NCBI RefSeq assembly: GCF_000424625.1
Contig: NZ_AUKG01000001.1
Location: 62,001 to 126,000 of the forward strand
Reading direction: 5' to 3'
Length of the DNA stretch: 64,000 bases
Origin: Conexibacter woesei Iso977N
GTDB taxonomy: Bacteria; Actinomycetota; Thermoleophilia; Solirubrobacterales; Solirubrobacteraceae
A program made the translations under genes and the position numbers. Below the pieces are notes generated by a model that searched no databases, was not told the DNA's origin, and saw nothing but the letters and a program-made list of their open reading frames with translations. Below, in pieces: positions 11,185-18,025 of the stretch. Positions within the stretch are counted from its first letter, which is position 1; each line of letters begins with the position of its first letter.

Positions 11185-11886
11185 TCAGATGGTCTTCAGC
11201 AGCTGCTCGTTGATCGCCTGGGCCAGCTTGTCGGCCGACGGGACGCCGGCGGAGAGCAGGGAGAGGTCGTTGGTGTCGGTGCCGATCAGGATCGTCGGCG
11301 TCGAGGTCACGGCGTAGCGGGACATCAGCGAGTGGACCGCGGCGAGGTCGTCGCGGATGGTCGGCGAGCGCTCGTCCTTCAGCGCCTGCGCGAGGTCGAT
11401 GCCGTGGATGCCGCTGAGCACGCCGCGCAGGAACGGCTGCGTCACGTAGCCGGAGTTCTCCTGGCCCTGGACGTCGTAGAAGCGCATCGAGGCGTCCCAC
11501 ATCCTGTCCTGGCGCTCGGCCGCCATCACCGCGGTGTTGGCCTTGGCGGAGTCCCTGCCGAGGACGTCGGTCAGGCGCAACTCCATCCGGACCTTCCCGG
11601 TCCGGACGTACCTCTGGACGATGTCCGGCCACGACGTCGCCGCGAACTCGCGGCAGTACGGGCACTGCAGGTCGGCGAACTCGACCAGCAGGACCGGCGC
11701 GTCCGCCCTGCCGAGCACCAGCCCGTTCTGCGGGATCCCGCGCAGGATCCGCGTCACGTCGCGCGTCGCCGGCCTGCGCGGCCTCGCGGCGTCGTTGCCG
11801 CTCTTGGTGCTGATGGCGACGGCGATCACCAGGATCGCCAGGGCGGCGCCGAGGACACCGGAGAAGATCGACAGGCGGCGGGTCAC
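11185..11886 (-). CDS. Membrane-anchored DsbA-like thiol-disulfide oxidoreductase
   Basis: A 233-residue protein. An N-terminal hydrophobic anchor (about 7-26) is followed by a DsbA/thioredoxin-fold domain facing outside. The redox motif C75-P-Y-C78 sits in FADLQCPYCREF and the cis-proline loop is STPTILIG. It probably oxidises or carries cysteines of exported proteins. The GTG start overlaps the VKOR stop by 4 bp. It is one of two related DsbA-like proteins flanking VKOR. Confidence 0.9.
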   Translation of the reverse strand: MTRRLSIFSGVLGAALAILVIAVAISTKSGNDAARPRRPATRDVTRILRGIPQNGLVLGRADAPVLLVEFADLQCPYCREFAATSWPDIVQRYVRTGKVRMELRLTDVLGRDSAKANTAVMAAERQDRMWDASMRFYDVQGQENSGYVTQPFLRGVLSGIHGIDLAQALKDERSPTIRDDLAAVHSLMSRYAVTSTPTILIGTDTNDLSLLSAGVPSADKLAQAINEQLLKTI

Positions 11887-12305
11887 GCCACCATGGTGTC
11901 GGGTTCACGCAGGAGGCGCCACGTGCACACCACTGCCAATCCGGTCATCAGGATCGCCGACCCGACGCACCACTGGCAGATCGCGTCGATCGTGAACAGC
12001 TCGCGGTAGGTCAGGTACATCGAGAACCCGAAGCCGACCAGCGCGGTCAGGGCCGCGATCATCCGGCCGATCTCGCCGTCGAAGATCAACGCCCCCAAGA
12101 TCACCACGTAGCCGATCAGCCCCAACAACGCGACCGGGATCCCCGCGAGCTTCGCGTACGCAGAGGTCTGTACCTTGTGGCACCCGTGCGCGATGTTGCA
12201 GATCGGGTTGATGTCCGCGTAGTGCACGTACACCAGGTAGCCGGCGATGCCGAGGCCGAGCACCACCAGGACGAACCCGGTGGTGCGCAGCGCGCGGTCG
12301 CTCAC
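11883..12305 (-). CDS. Vitamin K epoxide reductase (VKOR) family protein
   Basis: A 140-residue protein with four predicted membrane helices. The loop cysteines C36 and C42 (in NPICNIAHGCHKV) and the active-site pair C110-Q-W-C113 match bacterial VKOR homologues. These pass electrons from DsbA-type proteins to quinone, doing the job of DsbB. Residues DINPICN and IPVALLG are family hallmarks. The GTG start overlaps the upstream dsbA-like stop by 4 bp and its own stop overlaps the next gene by 4 bp, so the three are made as a unit. Confidence 0.92.
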   Translation of the reverse strand: MSDRALRTTGFVLVVLGLGIAGYLVYVHYADINPICNIAHGCHKVQTSAYAKLAGIPVALLGLIGYVVILGALIFDGEIGRMIAALTALVGFGFSMYLTYRELFTIDAICQWCVGSAILMTGLAVVCTWRLLREPDTMVA

Positions 12306-13114
12306 GTCCCGCTCTTGGCGGCCGCGGCGTCGACCAGCCTCGCGATGCCGGCGGCGGTCGGCGCCGACTCCCTGTCGATCTTGAGGTCGCCGCCGGTCGG
12401 GCCGACGAGGATCGTCGGCGTGCCGGTCACGCCGTAGCGGCTGGCCGCCGTCCTGGCGTCGCCGATCATCTGCTGGACGGCCGGGGTCGTCGCGTCCCTC
12501 TGGGCCTTGGCGGCGTCGCCGCCCGCGCCCTTGACGATCCCGTTGAGGAAGTCATCGGTCACGTAGCCCGAGTTCTCCTCACCCTGGTTGCGGTACATCA
12601 GGTCCGCGGTGTTCCAGAGCAGGTTCTGGTTGCCGGTCGCGTTGATCACCTGCGCCGCCGTGACCGAGTCCGGGCCGATGAACGTCAGCAGCCGCAGCTC
12701 CATCTTCGCCTTGCCGGTCCGCACCTGGTCCTGGACGACCTTCGGCATCTCGTTCAAGGTGTACTCCTTGCAGTACGGGCACTGCGGGTCGGCGAACTCG
12801 ACGATCGTGACCGGCGCGTCGGCCCTGCCGAGCGTGATCCCCTTCTGCGGGATCCCGTTCAACATCGCCTTGGTGTCGGACACGCCCGCGACGTCGCCGC
12901 CGCTGGACGCCGTCGGCGTCTTCCTCCTGCCGCCGCTGCTGCTGACGACGATCGCGACGATCACGACGACGACGGCCGCGCCGAGCAGGCCGCCGAGGGT
13001 CAGCAGCCGCTTCCTGCGGGTCGCCGCGGCGGCGGCCGCCTGCTCCTTGGCCTGACGGTCGGCCCTGGCCGCTTCGCGGCGTTCGCGCTTGTTGGGTGTG
13101 GTGGGTTCGGACAT
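12302..13114 (-). CDS. Membrane-anchored DsbA-like thiol-disulfide oxidoreductase
   Basis: A 270-residue protein. A basic N-terminus (KRERREAARADRQAKEQ) is followed by one hydrophobic helix (about 37-57) and an exported DsbA-fold domain. The redox motif is C112-P-Y-C115 in FADPQCPYCKEY, and the cis-Pro loop is GTPTILVG. ATG 13114 is chosen because AGGAAG lies at the right distance upstream; the open frame extends further without a ribosome site. It is the first gene of the DsbA-VKOR-DsbA set. Confidence 0.9.
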   Translation of the reverse strand: MSEPTTPNKRERREAARADRQAKEQAAAAAATRRKRLLTLGGLLGAAVVVVIVAIVVSSSGGRRKTPTASSGGDVAGVSDTKAMLNGIPQKGITLGRADAPVTIVEFADPQCPYCKEYTLNEMPKVVQDQVRTGKAKMELRLLTFIGPDSVTAAQVINATGNQNLLWNTADLMYRNQGEENSGYVTDDFLNGIVKGAGGDAAKAQRDATTPAVQQMIGDARTAASRYGVTGTPTILVGPTGGDLKIDRESAPTAAGIARLVDAAAAKSGT

Positions 13115-13148
13115 GGCGATCTTCCTGAAGGGTACGGAGGGAGGACCT

Positions 13149-13178
13149 CGTGCCGCGACGGTGGTCCGCCGCGGCACG
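13149..13178 (-). terminator. 9-bp hairpin between ycnI and the dsbA-like operon
   Basis: CGTGCCGCG (13149-13157) and CGCGGCACG (13170-13178) are perfect arms with a 12-nt loop. They lie after the ycnI stop (13202) and before the dsbA-like start (13114). The hairpin probably separates the copper locus from the disulfide operon. Confidence 0.55.
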
Positions 13179-13201: not shown

Positions 13202-13909
13202 CTACGCGCTTCGTCGTGACGCGGCGAGGCCCGCCCCACCGGCCGCCAGGCCCAGCACGCCGACGATCAGAGCGATGATCGCCAGCGTCTTGGAGGAGTC
13301 CGAGGAGTCGTCGGAGGAGGACGACGCGCCGCCCGGGGCCGACGTGTTCTCGGTCGTCGCGGTGCCGCCGGTGGCCGAGGTGCCGCTCGTCGCGGGCGTG
13401 GCCGCCGCGGCGGTCACCTGCACCTGCGGCGCCGGCTTGTCGGCGTCCGGCGCGCCGATCCAGCGCGCGACCGAGCCGTCGCTGTAGTACTGCAGCGCCT
13501 TGAAGGTCAGCGTGTCGCCCGCCTTGCCCGGGATCTGGACGCTCAGCGGGAAGTCCTGGAACTGCCCGGGCTTGATGCCGGACGTCTTGCCGCCCGAGGT
13601 CCACGTGATCGTCTTGACGCCCTCGGTGACCTCGCCGTCGTCGGTCCTGACCGGCGTCGCGAGCTTCTCCTTGGTGACCTTGGCGGTCCAACCCGGGATC
13701 GACTGGTAGCTGACTTCGGCGAAGCCCTCCGGGAACTGGACGGTGATCTTGTTGGTGACCGCGTTGTCGGTCTCGTTCGGGACCCGGACGGACTCCACGG
13801 TGTAGGACCCCGCGGCGGCGGTCTTCGGCTGGACGGTGACGTGCGCGGCTGCGGTGGCCGGGATCGCCAGGACGCCGGCAGCGGCGGTGGCGAGGACGAT
13901 GCGCTTCAT
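13202..13909 (-). CDS. ycnI: YcnI-like copper-associated membrane protein (DUF1775)
   Basis: A 235-residue protein. A signal peptide ends at ATAAAHVTV, leaving a histidine (H23) at the mature N-terminus, as in YcnI proteins where it binds copper. The DUF1775 domain (to about 160) includes RVPNETDNAVTNKI and IPGWTAKV. A Ser/Thr/Asp linker and a C-terminal membrane helix (about 210-228) anchor it outside. The neighbouring CopC-CopD fusion supports a role in copper uptake or handling. RBS-like AGAAGGAAA lies upstream. Confidence 0.88.
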   Translation of the reverse strand: MKRIVLATAAAGVLAIPATAAAHVTVQPKTAAAGSYTVESVRVPNETDNAVTNKITVQFPEGFAEVSYQSIPGWTAKVTKEKLATPVRTDDGEVTEGVKTITWTSGGKTSGIKPGQFQDFPLSVQIPGKAGDTLTFKALQYYSDGSVARWIGAPDADKPAPQVQVTAAAATPATSGTSATGGTATTENTSAPGGASSSSDDSSDSSKTLAIIALIVGVLGLAAGGAGLAASRRSA

Positions 13910-13932: not shown

Positions 13933-13973
13933 GAGTTGATGGTGGTGTCGCTTCCGTTGTTGTCCATCAACTC
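13933..13973 (-). promoter_or_regulatory. 10-bp inverted repeat upstream of ycnI
   Basis: GAGTTGATGG (13933-13942) and CCATCAACTC (13964-13973) are perfect arms, extendable by three bases with one mismatch, around a 21-nt spacer. The element is 24-64 bp before the ycnI start. It could be an operator (arm centres about three helical turns apart) or an mRNA hairpin between the upstream copper genes and ycnI. Copper control is only a guess. Confidence 0.45.
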
Positions 13974-13974
13974 G

Positions 13975-14201
13975 CGCGGCGGCGGCCGCGACGCGATCGC
14001 CGACCCCACCAGCCGCCCGCCCCGCGGCCCGGCCGCGAACGGCCTGCGCGCGATCCGTGCCACGGCTCGCCCGGAACGGCGGCGCGGCCGCGCGCGGTGC
14101 CGCGGCAGCCGCCGGGCGAGCGTGCGCTCGCCCGGGTAGAAGCCCGCCGCGAGCGCGGCGAGCAGCAGCAGGAACGGCAGGCAGTCGAGCAGGAAGCCCA
14201 C
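13975..14201 (-). CDS. Small membrane protein, GExTLxR family (3' end uncertain)
   Basis: A GTG at 14201 shares one base with the copCD stop (TAGTG). It opens a frame starting GFLLDCLPFLLLL, one membrane helix, then GFYPGERTLARRL and an Arg-rich tail to about residue 75. This aligns well with the 110-residue protein at 16759-17091 (YLGEDTLERL, RRR, RGG.L, PP near the end). After the homologous part the frame has no stop until 13191, reading through the ycnI gene in another frame. A TGA lies one base out of frame just after the similarity ends. This suggests a small indel or an extended C-terminus. Function unknown. Confidence 0.5.
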
Positions 14202-15916
14202 TACGACACGGGCACCCTGAACGTCGTGGTGTACTCGTCGAAGTCGGAGACGCGGTCGGTCACCGTGACCGTCCACTTCCCGCCCGGCGCCAACGACATG
14301 GCGTTGGCCACGTAGTGCCCGGGACCGGCCCTGTTGAGCGTCGCGGGCAGCGGGCCGATGCCCTTGCTCGGCAGTTGCGCGCTGACGTCGAGCTCCTTCG
14401 TGCCGTCGAACGGTGAGCCGTCCCTGGCGTTGAAGATGTAGAGGTGGACCGCGTTCTCGCCCGCGCGCGCGGGGTCGACGGTCAGCTCGATCTGCAGCGG
14501 GCCGGTCGTCGCGCTGTGCGAGTACGGCCCGGCGGACAGCGCGGTCGGCGGCGCGTAGGACACCAGCGCGCTCGTCACGGCCAGGACCACGACGACGAGC
14601 CCGACCTCGACCCGCAGCGTGTTGCGCAGGATCCGGCCGGTCGCGCCCGGCGAGCTGCCGTCGCGCGCCGCGGCGCGCAGGCGCGGGACCGACCGCTGCC
14701 GGTTCAGCGCGCCGAGCCCGATCAACGCCACCAACAAGATGATCTTGATCAGCACCGCGCGCCCGAAGGCCGTGTGCAGGAAGTCGCCGAACGACCGCAG
14801 GTGCACGATCGACTGCGCGGTGCCGGTCGCGATCAGCAGCGCCACGCACGTCAGCGCGACCACCGAGAAGCGCGACAGCGCCGTGCTGAGCAGCGGCGTG
14901 CGCGCGGTCGCGTCCGGGATCGCGCGCGTCGCGGCCGGGACCGCGGTCAGCAGCACGACCAGGCCGCCGACCCACGCGCTCATCGCCAGCACGTGGATCA
15001 CGTCCAGCGGCGCGAGCAGCGCGACCGGGTGCTGCGTGGTCGCGTGGCCGCCGAGCGCGGGTGCGACCGCGAGGTACGCCGCGGGGATCGCGTAGGGCAG
15101 GACGCTGCGGCGCAGCGGCGCGCCCCACGTCAGGGCGAGGCCGCCGACGATCGCGAAGTCCAGGATCCGCAGGCCCCAGACGGTCCCGAAGCGCGTGCCC
15201 AGGACCTCCCTGACCGTGCTCGGGTCCAGCGACGACCAGAACGTCGTGCCGCTCGCGGTCGCACCCTGCAGGACCAGGCCCGCCAGGCCCGCCAGCACAC
15301 CGATCAGCGCGCCGGACCAGAGCAGGACGGTGGCGCGGCGCGCGAACGCGTCCTGGGCCTCGAGCGGCGGCCCGGGCGCGCCGTTGGCGCGCGGCCACGC
15401 GAGCAGGATGAACAACAACGTCCCGATGACCAGCGCGATCGCCAGGTAGTCGGCGCCGCGCGCGATCCCGAACGCGGTCTCGGTGACCTTGCCCACCTGC
15501 GCGCCCTTGAGCAGGTCGGAGACGGTCTCGGACGGCGCGACGCCCGCCTTCCCGATCGAGAAGACGAAGCCGCCGCTGACCGGGTGCGAGTCCGCCGAGA
15601 TCACGCGGTAGGTCGCGGTGTAGGTCCCGTCCCTGAGCCCGGACCTGAGCCCGACCGCCAGCTGCGCGCCGGTCCCGTTGGGGTGGATCGTGTGGCCGTC
15701 GTCGACGCGGTCGCCCCTGCCGTCGAAGACGCGGACCGCGCCGAAGTTGCCCTCCACCGACTCGTCGAAGCGCAGGACGACCTGGCGCGGCGCGGTCTTG
15801 GCGACCGCCCCGCGCTCGGGGCTCGTCTGCTCCAGCGTCGCGTGCGCGAACGCCGCCGCGGGCAGCAGCGCCAGCAGCGCGGCGACCGCGCCGATCAGGA
15901 GGGCGAGGCGCTTCAC
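14201..15916 (-). CDS. CopC-CopD fusion copper transport protein (YcnJ-like)
   Basis: A 571-residue protein. A signal peptide (1-24) leaves H25 at the start of a CopC domain (HATLEQTSP, to about 120), with another His in ISADSHPVSGGF. About eight membrane helices of a CopD domain follow (about 150-455). The C-terminal 110 residues form an exported beta domain resembling YtkA/FixH modules (PLQIELTVDPARAGEN). Such fusions import or transfer copper across the membrane. The GTG start overlaps the preceding gene by 4 bp. Confidence 0.9.
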   Translation of the reverse strand: MKRLALLIGAVAALLALLPAAAFAHATLEQTSPERGAVAKTAPRQVVLRFDESVEGNFGAVRVFDGRGDRVDDGHTIHPNGTGAQLAVGLRSGLRDGTYTATYRVISADSHPVSGGFVFSIGKAGVAPSETVSDLLKGAQVGKVTETAFGIARGADYLAIALVIGTLLFILLAWPRANGAPGPPLEAQDAFARRATVLLWSGALIGVLAGLAGLVLQGATASGTTFWSSLDPSTVREVLGTRFGTVWGLRILDFAIVGGLALTWGAPLRRSVLPYAIPAAYLAVAPALGGHATTQHPVALLAPLDVIHVLAMSAWVGGLVVLLTAVPAATRAIPDATARTPLLSTALSRFSVVALTCVALLIATGTAQSIVHLRSFGDFLHTAFGRAVLIKIILLVALIGLGALNRQRSVPRLRAAARDGSSPGATGRILRNTLRVEVGLVVVVLAVTSALVSYAPPTALSAGPYSHSATTGPLQIELTVDPARAGENAVHLYIFNARDGSPFDGTKELDVSAQLPSKGIGPLPATLNRAGPGHYVANAMSLAPGGKWTVTVTDRVSDFDEYTTTFRVPVS

Positions 15917-16659
15917 CAGGCCTCGCCGCCGGTCGCGGCGGGCGCCGCCGGCCGGGCCGTGGGCGCGTCGTCACGCGGCGCGCCGCCGCCGTCCGGATCG
16001 TCGTCGCCGCCACCACCCGCGGCCCGCCTGCGCCGCGTCAGCACGACCGCGCCCACGCTCAGCACCAGCAGGACCACGAACGCCACGATCGCGCCGATCG
16101 GCGCGCCGCCGTCCTTGGGCGGATCCCAGTACAGCGTCCCGAGGATCTTGCCCTGCTGGCTGCCGATCTTGATCGGGATCCTGTAGTCGAAGATCTTGGT
16201 CTTCGCCTTCTTGTCCCTGACCACCGTCGGGACGCCGGTCGACATGTAGTGCATGCGGTGGTCGTGCCACTGGAACACGCCGGTCTTGTCCAGCAGCTGC
16301 CAGTCCGGCGTCGCCTTCGCGTTCGCCGTCTTGGGCACGGTCACCGCGCCGTAGCGGTCCGTGTTGAGGTAGAACGCCGGCGAGTTGTGGTTGACGAGGA
16401 CCGTGCCGTCGGGGGAGATCCTCGCGTAGGGCTCGCTCTCGTAGCCCTGCACCAGGATCGTGTCCCTGCTGCGGTTGGTGATCTGGAAGCGGTCGTCGTT
16501 GTTGAGCACCTGCAGCGTCACGCCAGGCACGCGCGGCGTCAGCTGGTTGACGACCGACTTCATGTTCGGGTTGCCCTGGTGGGCCAGGGCGGCGGCCGGG
16601 ACGAGCGCTGCGGCGACGAGCGACGCGACGGTCAGGGCGAAAGCCAGGGAGCGGCGCAT
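15913..16659 (-). CDS. Exported membrane-anchored protein with WHDHRMHYM motif
   Basis: A 248-residue protein with no function I can name. A signal peptide (1-26) is followed by an exported beta-rich domain and a C-terminal helix (about 188-211) with a charged Gly/Asp/Pro-rich tail. W131-H-D-H-R-M-H-Y-M139 packs three His and two Met into nine residues, and NHNSPAFYLN adds another His. These are plausible copper ligands. Its stop overlaps the copCD start by 4 bp, so the two are coupled. I infer a copper-binding partner of CopC-CopD. Confidence 0.8.
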   Translation of the reverse strand: MRRSLAFALTVASLVAAALVPAAALAHQGNPNMKSVVNQLTPRVPGVTLQVLNNDDRFQITNRSRDTILVQGYESEPYARISPDGTVLVNHNSPAFYLNTDRYGAVTVPKTANAKATPDWQLLDKTGVFQWHDHRMHYMSTGVPTVVRDKKAKTKIFDYRIPIKIGSQQGKILGTLYWDPPKDGGAPIGAIVAFVVLLVLSVGAVVLTRRRRAAGGGGDDDPDGGGAPRDDAPTARPAAPAATGGEAW

Positions 16660-16758: not shown

Positions 16759-17091
16759 TCAGCGCGCGAGCGCGGGCGGCCCGCGCTCGGCGAGCGCGTC
16801 CGCGAGCAGCAGGCCGCCGCGGGCGACGAGCGCGCGGGGCCGCCGGGGTGCCACGAAGGCGACGACGGTGCCGGCGAAGCGGCGGCGGCGCGGGACGGCG
16901 CGGCGCGCCGCGAGGCGCTCCAGCGTGTCCTCGCCGAGGTAGCGGCCGGCGACCAGCGGCAGTGCGAGCACGAGCGCCGGAGACAGCAGCAGCAGGCCCG
17001 TGTGCAGTCCGGTGACGGACTCGGCCAGCGCGACGATCACGCCGAGGACGGCGATCGCGAGCAGCGGGCGGAGGTCCCGGCGGACGGTCAT
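16759..17091 (-). CDS. Small membrane protein, GExTLxR family
   Basis: A 110-residue protein with two hydrophobic segments (about 8-24 and 30-48), then RYLGEDTLERLAARR and a basic tail rich in Arg and Ala. It is similar to the small ORF after copCD, so the locus seems to hold two copies of this family. No enzyme motif is seen. It is probably the first gene of the copper operon, separated from the WHDH protein by 99 bp with no clear terminator. Function unknown. Confidence 0.7.
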   Translation of the reverse strand: MTVRRDLRPLLAIAVLGVIVALAESVTGLHTGLLLLSPALVLALPLVAGRYLGEDTLERLAARRAVPRRRRFAGTVVAFVAPRRPRALVARGGLLLADALAERGPPALAR

Positions 17092-17683: not shown

Positions 17684-18025
17684 TCAGTTGCCGTTCGAAG
17701 GCGTACGCCGGTCGGAGACGATCAGCGTCGCCCTCATGCCCAGGCGCTCGTGGTCGGCGACCGTGCAGACGAGCAGGTAGCGCCCCGGCGTGCGCAGGTT
17801 CAGGCGCAGCGTGGCGGTGCTCCCGGGCTTGACGATCGTGGCCAGCCCGCCGACCCGCTTCCCGGCGCGCTTGACCACGAGGTCGTGCACGTCCTCGCCC
17901 AGGTTGCGGACGTTGAGCTTGAGACGGCCGGGCCTGACGCGCGGGCGGTAGATGGCGATCGCGTACTCGCGCTCGCCGACGCCGACCGGCGTGGCGGCCG
18001 GGACCGCTGCGGCCTCGGCGAACAT
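17684..18025 (-). CDS. Cupredoxin-like protein with type 1 copper ligands
   Basis: A 113-residue beta-sandwich protein. H47 (GEDVHDLVV), C87, H92 and M97 (CTVADHERLGM) fit the plastocyanin layout Cys-x4-His-x4-Met with an upstream His, a type 1 copper site for electron transfer. The ATG at 18025 directly follows the DUF1501 stop. The N-terminus MFAEAAAVPAATP looks like the end of a signal peptide, but no hydrophobic core precedes it. Export is therefore unclear, and an upstream start is blocked by the neighbouring gene. Confidence 0.8.
   Translation of the reverse strand: MFAEAAAVPAATPVGVGEREYAIAIYRPRVRPGRLKLNVRNLGEDVHDLVVKRAGKRVGGLATIVKPGSTATLRLNLRTPGRYLLVCTVADHERLGMRATLIVSDRRTPSNGN

What the first reader, a model, noticed from the sequence alone, without database searches (positions are those of the whole stretch)
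15913..16659. Uncharacterised membrane-anchored protein with a WHDHRMHYM metal motif
Three His and two Met in nine residues, an exported position and a 4-bp overlap with copCD argue for a new copper-binding partner of CopC-CopD. I recognise no named family for it.
Basis: partly seen in the sequence, partly recalled or inferred. Interest (0 to 1): 0.55.

Follow-up and report, generated by a model that had tools for sequence, protein, structure and literature searches.

The report
Unnamed copper-pathway partner protein in Actinomycetota
A small unnamed membrane-anchored protein with a conserved three-histidine motif is made next to, and in one bacterium joined to, a copper importer, so it is probably a new outside-facing copper-handling partner, although nobody has yet shown that it binds copper.

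Summary
Window 15913-16659 (-) encodes a 248-aa protein with a signal peptide, one C-terminal membrane helix, WHDHRMHYM at residues 131-139, and a 4-bp overlap with copC-copD. It has no Pfam or NCBIfam match. Relatives occur in 53 of 396 sampled Actinomycetota genomes and 74 of 201 of the order. In rows found without motif selection, all three histidines are kept in 60 of 74, and in 36 of 38 with CopD or DUF1775 in the locus. Met136 is not conserved.

Seven of 80 loci fuse the domain to DyP peroxidases, one in a DUF1775-SCO1-PCuAC-CopCD row. His27 is probably the mature N-terminus, but is not universal. The tail ends in a conserved E-x-W, mostly where CopCD follows.

Best reading: a new family of extracytoplasmic copper-handling partner for the DUF1775/CopCD (YcnI/YcnJ) system. 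Copper binding is inferred; no metal was measured and no coordinates were available.

The parts
15913..16659 (-). coding sequence of the unnamed 248-aa protein
   Evidence: only match in the genome at E<=0.01
16582..16659 (-). signal peptide, residues 1-26, ending ALA before His27
   Evidence: read from the sequence and the family alignment; cleavage not tested
16579..16581 (-). His27, probable first residue of the mature protein
   Evidence: H in 19 of 25 relatives rows and 27 of 50 phylum rows
16243..16269 (-). WHDHRMHYM motif, residues 131-139; conserved core HDHRxHxM
16024..16098 (-). single membrane helix, residues 188-212, ending in Arg residues
   Evidence: AlphaFold2 model; alignment
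15916..15924 (-). C-terminal Glu-Ala-Trp of the tail
   Evidence: 51 of 136 non-redundant members end in W, 39 of them in EAW; codon variation
15913..15916 (-). 4-bp overlap of this gene's stop with the GTG start of copCD
14201..15916 (-). CopC-CopD fusion protein (YcnJ-like)
   Evidence: Pfam CopC 5.7e-22 and CopD 1.1e-20
13202..13909 (-). DUF1775 (YcnI-like) protein
   Evidence: Pfam DUF1775 8.7e-48
16759..17091 (-). small unnamed protein (GRYxGExxL signature), recurrent in these operons
   Evidence: no Pfam match; relatives
12302..13177 (-). DsbA-like exported thioredoxin
   Evidence: Pfam
11886..12305 (-). VKOR-like protein (my own gene call)
   Evidence: Pfam VKOR 8.9e-23
11185..11904 (-). 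second DsbA-like protein
   Evidence: Pfam
17684..18025 (-). cupredoxin-like protein upstream
   Evidence: Pfam Cupredoxin_1 21.3 bits, cut-off 27; Cu-oxidase_2 20.6 bits, cut-off 20.4

Best explanation
The gene belongs to an undescribed protein family whose outside-facing all-beta domain handles copper together with the CopC-CopD importer (YcnJ-like) and DUF1775 (YcnI-like). The signal peptide exports it, one helix anchors it, and the domain faces out. Copper is probably held by His132, His134 and His137, with Asp133 or Met139 possible helpers; in the window's clade the freed N-terminal His27 may complete a histidine-brace-like site. It would pass copper to, or receive it from, CopC, CopD or DUF1775, and in other actinomycetes Sco, PCuAC or a DyP peroxidase. 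The Glu-x-Trp end of the cytoplasmic tail may dock it to CopCD. Shown: sequence anatomy, conservation, operon context, fusions. Inferred: metal binding, copper as the metal, transfer partners, direction of transfer, topology and docking.
For: Context without motif selection: CopD lies in 16 of 24 relatives loci (window's own included) and 23 of 56 phylum loci, DUF1775 in 15 of 24 and 14 of 56, any copper gene searched in 18 of 24 and 33 of 56; the 61 relatives genomes had 0 to 4 CopD matches each. Of these 61, 17 of 21 with the gene have CopD over cut-off against 10 of 40 without it (not corrected for descent). Immediate neighbours in the phylum set, 99 proteins from 53 loci by my own gene calls: DUF1775 10, CopC 7, CopD 5, plastocyanin-type 4, PCuAC 2. 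Fusion: L043 joins the domain to CopD with no CopC match and, by eye, no anchor of its own. Seven of 80 loci fuse it to a DyP peroxidase, in L123 with a cupredoxin and following DUF1775-SCO1-PCuAC-CopCD. Loci without CopCD can still carry SCO1 and PCuAC (L036, L106) or CtaG and a metal ATPase (L100). On an Iamia plasmid a relative lies among CopD, DUF1775 and cupredoxin genes. The His triad is intact in 36 of 38 rows with CopD or DUF1775 in the locus and 24 of 36 without (p 0.0026). No Cys in 74 of 75 ectodomains, so not a Cys-based chaperone. By analogy, B. subtilis YcnI and the CopC domain of YcnJ exchange Cu(II) (PMC12362106, abstract seen), and the sco-ecuc-SLI_4212-dtpA operon is tied to copper enzyme maturation in Streptomyces (PMC4736821, passages seen).
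Against: No metal was measured and no coordinates were available to test site geometry. Arg135 and Asn90 are better conserved than the histidines, which fits a structural role too. His27 is not universal. Of loci examined, 6 of 24 and 23 of 56 had no copper gene detected, and 24 rows keep the triad without CopD or DUF1775 in the locus. Kinase/PASTA (6) and other unrelated families are also among the phylum neighbours. No DyP was detected in the 80 loci of the two unbiased sets, so those fusions belong to a part of the family seen only in the motif-selected set. CopD occurs without a match to this gene in 10 of 61 genomes, so CopD does not depend on it. Only one CopD fusion was seen. L045 sits beside CopCD with a broken triad (H-R-R).
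Confidence: 0.6

Rival explanations
1. It is a maturation factor for an exported copper enzyme (cytochrome oxidase CuA site or a copper radical oxidase), working mainly with Sco, PCuAC and DyP; its place beside CopCD is pathway clustering and it is no partner of the importer.
For: SCO1 and PCuAC in the locus where CopCD is absent (L036, L106) and CtaG in L100; SCO in 7 and PCuAC in 7 of 56 phylum loci; DyP fusions; a galactose-oxidase-like gene directly upstream on a Pseudonocardia plasmid; four UbiA-family neighbours in the phylum set.
Against: CopD and DUF1775 are found in more loci than SCO or PCuAC, and DUF1775 and CopC are the commonest immediate neighbours; L043 is fused to CopD; the E-x-W tail goes with CopCD.
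Confidence: 0.22
2. It is a structural or assembly subunit of the CopCD complex that binds no metal; the motif is a folding element built on Asp133 and Arg135.
For: Arg135 and Asn90 are kept more strictly than the histidines, and an acidic residue at 133 is kept in rows that lost them.
Against: Three His, an acidic residue and a Met kept together in an exported copper-pathway protein are hard to explain by folding alone, and the triad is kept more often where CopD or DUF1775 is in the locus.
Confidence: 0.15
3. For the tail only: Glu-Ala-Trp is a by-product of the ribosome-binding site and GTG start of copCD that overlap it.
For: GAGG inside the Glu-Ala codons can serve as a ribosome-binding site, also before the ATG that follows TAG in L063, L077, L084 and L089, and TGG-TGA supplies the GTG start; the tail goes with CopCD downstream (of 68 scored rows 47 have both, 17 neither, 4 one only).
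Against: Ten of 50 W-ending rows stop with TAG, where the Trp codon gives no GTG start; the third-last codon is GAG 28, GAA 16, GAC 5, CAA 1, and the next encodes Ala, Ser or Val; L045 keeps EAW with CopCD upstream, not downstream.
Confidence: 0.15

Closest known systems
YcnI / DUF1775 (PF07987)
   Same: Exported, one C-terminal membrane helix, beside CopC-CopD. DUF1775 proteins have a very conserved His near the N-terminus (PMC8424229, section 4 read); the window protein has one too.
   Different: No sequence or profile relation (hhalign probability 0.3%; no Pfam match); the core is HDHRxHxM; both proteins are encoded in the same window operon.
CopC (PF04234)
   Same: Outside-facing domain that can be attached to CopD; in L043 this domain takes CopC's place; N-terminal His in part of the family.
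   Different: No Pfam match and hhalign probability 0.2%; about 160 residues with its own anchor; the window has both it and CopC.
Anglerases Ang-1/Ang-2 (PMC12537917, section 8 part 1 and passages read)
   Same: Exported metal-binding domains with an N-terminal His joined to membrane parts; Ang-2 is restricted to Actinomycetota there.
   Different: Those are joined to HupE/UreJ permeases; here CopD, DyP, a single helix, or an unnamed helical domain without a Pfam match.
S. lividans sco-ecuc-SLI_4212-dtpA operon (PMC4736821, passages read)
   Same: L123 holds DUF1775, SCO1, PCuAC, CopCD and a DyP gene in a row.
   Different: In L123 the DyP carries this domain and a membrane part at its N-terminus and a cupredoxin at its C-terminus; the passages read do not mention such a domain.

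Membership tests
CopC | match to the CopC profile | tested here: not met
   0 Pfam families at E<=1 for the window protein; hhalign of A2 against a CopC alignment, probability 0.2%
CopC | CopC fold | tested here: inconclusive
   model pLDDT 96.7 but no Foldseek PDB match with E<=0.001 and best VIA Z 4.7
CopC | N-terminal His after signal cleavage (start of PMC7529816 abstract, seen in the listing) | tested here: inconclusive
   ALA|H in the sequence; H27 in 19 of 25 and 27 of 50 rows; cleavage not shown
DUF1775 / YcnI | match to the DUF1775 profile | tested here: not met
   no match; hhalign probability 0.3%
DUF1775 / YcnI | exported domain with one C-terminal membrane helix next to CopCD | tested here: met
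   (sequence and model)
Sco | Cys pair (recalled) and SCO1-SenC profile | tested here: not met
   no Cys in the window protein; no Pfam match
PCuAC | match to the PCuAC profile | tested here: not met
   no match
histidine-brace copper proteins | copper held by the N-terminal His and a second His | not testable with these tools
   candidate residues present in the window protein; no coordinates and no metal data
Anglerase | fusion to a HupE/UreJ membrane domain | tested here: not met
   one helix in the window protein; 0 Pfam families at E<=0.01 for the multi-helix relatives L119, L102, L047

The most novel reading that the evidence does not exclude
A new copper-site family (HDHRxHxM, sometimes with a mature N-terminal His) is a second gate of the CopD importer that can replace CopC, and is tied to CopCD from the inside by a C-terminal Glu-x-Trp docking signal; in other actinomycetes the same domain feeds copper or electrons to a DyP peroxidase.
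Probability: 0.22. Interest if true: 0.68.

Novelty: new variant of a known kind. Interest (0 to 1): 0.5.

Why it matters
How bacteria recognise and take up outside copper is little known (PMC12362106, abstract and start of the introduction seen); in B. subtilis YcnI and YcnJ have been worked out in part (that paper and PMC13344008, abstract and passages seen). A further component in Actinomycetota, with a natural fusion to CopD and others to DyP peroxidases, would give a concrete new protein to test, and a short tail motif that may predict partnership with the importer.

Tried and rejected
Designed beta-trefoil proteins matched residues 57-87 by sequence (E 1.3e-7; profile E 5.2e-9). The match is one short stretch (YARISPDGTV region) in symmetric synthetic proteins; I take it as local resemblance, not homology, and did not resolve it. 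FGF1 and PSD-95 rows are weak (E 0.2 or worse).

HLA-type hits (E 0.009 or worse) cover the domain end, helix and Arg tail. LPXTG-type and other C-terminal anchor models matched some of 80 members at E 0.00055 or worse, and Pfam DUF4232 two members at 0.00053; no sortase motif was looked for further.

Fold searches of both models gave nothing firm: window domain no Foldseek E<=0.001, VIA best Z 4.7; L119 best Z 8.1 on the helices only, within the range that the tool calls common. Weak rows to the AmoB and PmoB C-terminal domain (Z 3.9 and 3.5) were not used.

A universal histidine brace was considered and rejected: His27 is missing in many relatives. A CopC or DUF1775 origin was tested and found no support. 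The first related-loci scan with the single protein found no relatives; the second used alignment A1, 19 of the 24 members then in hand. The tree test of tail against CopCD had only 2 independent pairs on supported branches, too few for significance; the Fisher p of 6e-12 there is not corrected for descent. One search failed with an error and was rerun in changed form. Literature: none of the papers listed names this family in its title or the start of its abstract; the lists were capped (35: 15 of 206), and only the held open-access library was searched.

Full report
What is there. The ORF at window 15913-16659 (-) is 248 aa, starts with ATG, and its TGA shares 4 bp with the GTG of a CopC-CopD fusion gene. 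A signal peptide ends in ALA just before His27; a domain follows, then one helix, Arg residues and a tail that ends Glu-Ala-Trp. The operon continues with DUF1775, then DsbA-like, VKOR-like and DsbA-like genes. Upstream lie a small unnamed protein and, further off, a cupredoxin-like gene with weak Pfam matches.

Family. The window protein has no Pfam or NCBIfam hit at E<=1. Scanning 19 and then 80 relatives gave only scattered weak matches, many to anchor-type C-termini. Plasmid-borne relatives in Iamia and Pseudonocardia, 3 records, are annotated 'hypothetical protein'. Protein search found it in 21 of 61 relatives genomes (own included); a profile found it in 53 of 396 genomes of the phylum and 74 of 201 of the order. 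A pattern scan of genome contigs found 183 relatives, of which the 80 best were returned. That scan used the motif, so those 80 rows (79 after one duplicate) are not used to judge the motif. They did go into the profile A2 used for the phylum search.

Conservation. For the count I aligned the window with 24 rows from 23 relatives loci (one protein split into its two repeats) and 50 domain rows from the 56 phylum loci; 12 partial matches were dropped. Genomes found in both searches were fetched once, with the relatives. The core is HDHRxHxM; Asn90 (25 of 25 and 50 of 50) and Arg135 (24 of 25 and 50 of 50) are the strictest positions counted. The three histidines are all present in 60 of 74 rows (one gapped row set aside), 36 of 38 when CopD or DUF1775 lies in the locus and 24 of 36 otherwise. 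His27 is common but not universal: rows that begin ADPxxPT lack it.

Context and fusions. CopD lies in 16 of 24 relatives loci (the window's own among them) and 23 of 56 phylum loci; 18 of 24 and 33 of 56 have at least one copper gene among those searched. Loci are of unequal length (3.8 to 19 kb) and some end inside the operon, such as L037, so the counts may be low. L043 is a 683-aa protein with this domain followed by CopD and no CopC match. Seven of 80 loci carry domain, helices and DyP in one frame (an eighth, L110, is split between frames); no DyP was detected in the 24 and 56 loci. L123 has the row DUF1775, SCO1, PCuAC, CopCD, then the domain-DyP-cupredoxin protein.

Tail. Of 136 non-redundant members without CopD or DyP fusion, 51 end in Trp: EAW 39, DVW 4, ESW 3, EVW 2, DAW, QAW and RGW 1 each; three of the 136 run off a contig. 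Among 72 short-tailed rows, 47 have Trp and CopCD downstream, 17 neither, 2 CopCD only, 2 Trp only, 4 could not be scored. Of 2069 stop-to-stop frames of 100 residues or more in 25 loci, 15 end in E[AS][WFY], and all 15 are family members. Codon variation and TAG stops indicate that the residues, not only the DNA, are kept. A role in docking to CopCD is my inference.

Structure. An AlphaFold2 model of residues 27-213 has mean pLDDT 96.7: ten strands, a short helix and the membrane helix; the motif runs from a strand end into a turn. Searches of solved structures gave no firm match, which does not prove a new fold.

Verdict. The evidence makes a copper-pathway role likely and a direct partnership with CopCD plausible; copper binding remains to be measured.

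Noticed in passing
window 16759-17091 (-) and about 13940-14204 (-): A small unnamed protein family with a GRYxGExxL signature occurs just upstream of the finding and apparently again between CopCD and DUF1775; 48 frames in the loci in hand bear the signature, 46 of them also phmmer hits, duplicates included. The second window copy has no stop before running out of frame through DUF1775.
   Followed up: partly
L107, L111, L114, L116, L121, L123, L127: DyP-type peroxidases fused to this domain through a multi-helix membrane part; cupredoxin domains or genes at their C-terminal side in L107, L114, L121 and L123.
   Followed up: partly
L218 3401-5800 and 5956-7068: On a Pseudonocardia plasmid a galactose-oxidase-like gene lies directly upstream of a relative.
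   Followed up: no
L046 3431-4540: One relative carries two copies of the domain in tandem, both with an incomplete His triad.
   Followed up: no
L066 and L082: Record titles name Bifidobacterium breve MAGs, but the sequences resemble Solirubrobacterales relatives; probably mislabelled bins.
   Followed up: no
window 15913-16659, residues 57-87 of the protein: Unexplained local sequence likeness to designed beta-trefoil proteins.
   Followed up: no
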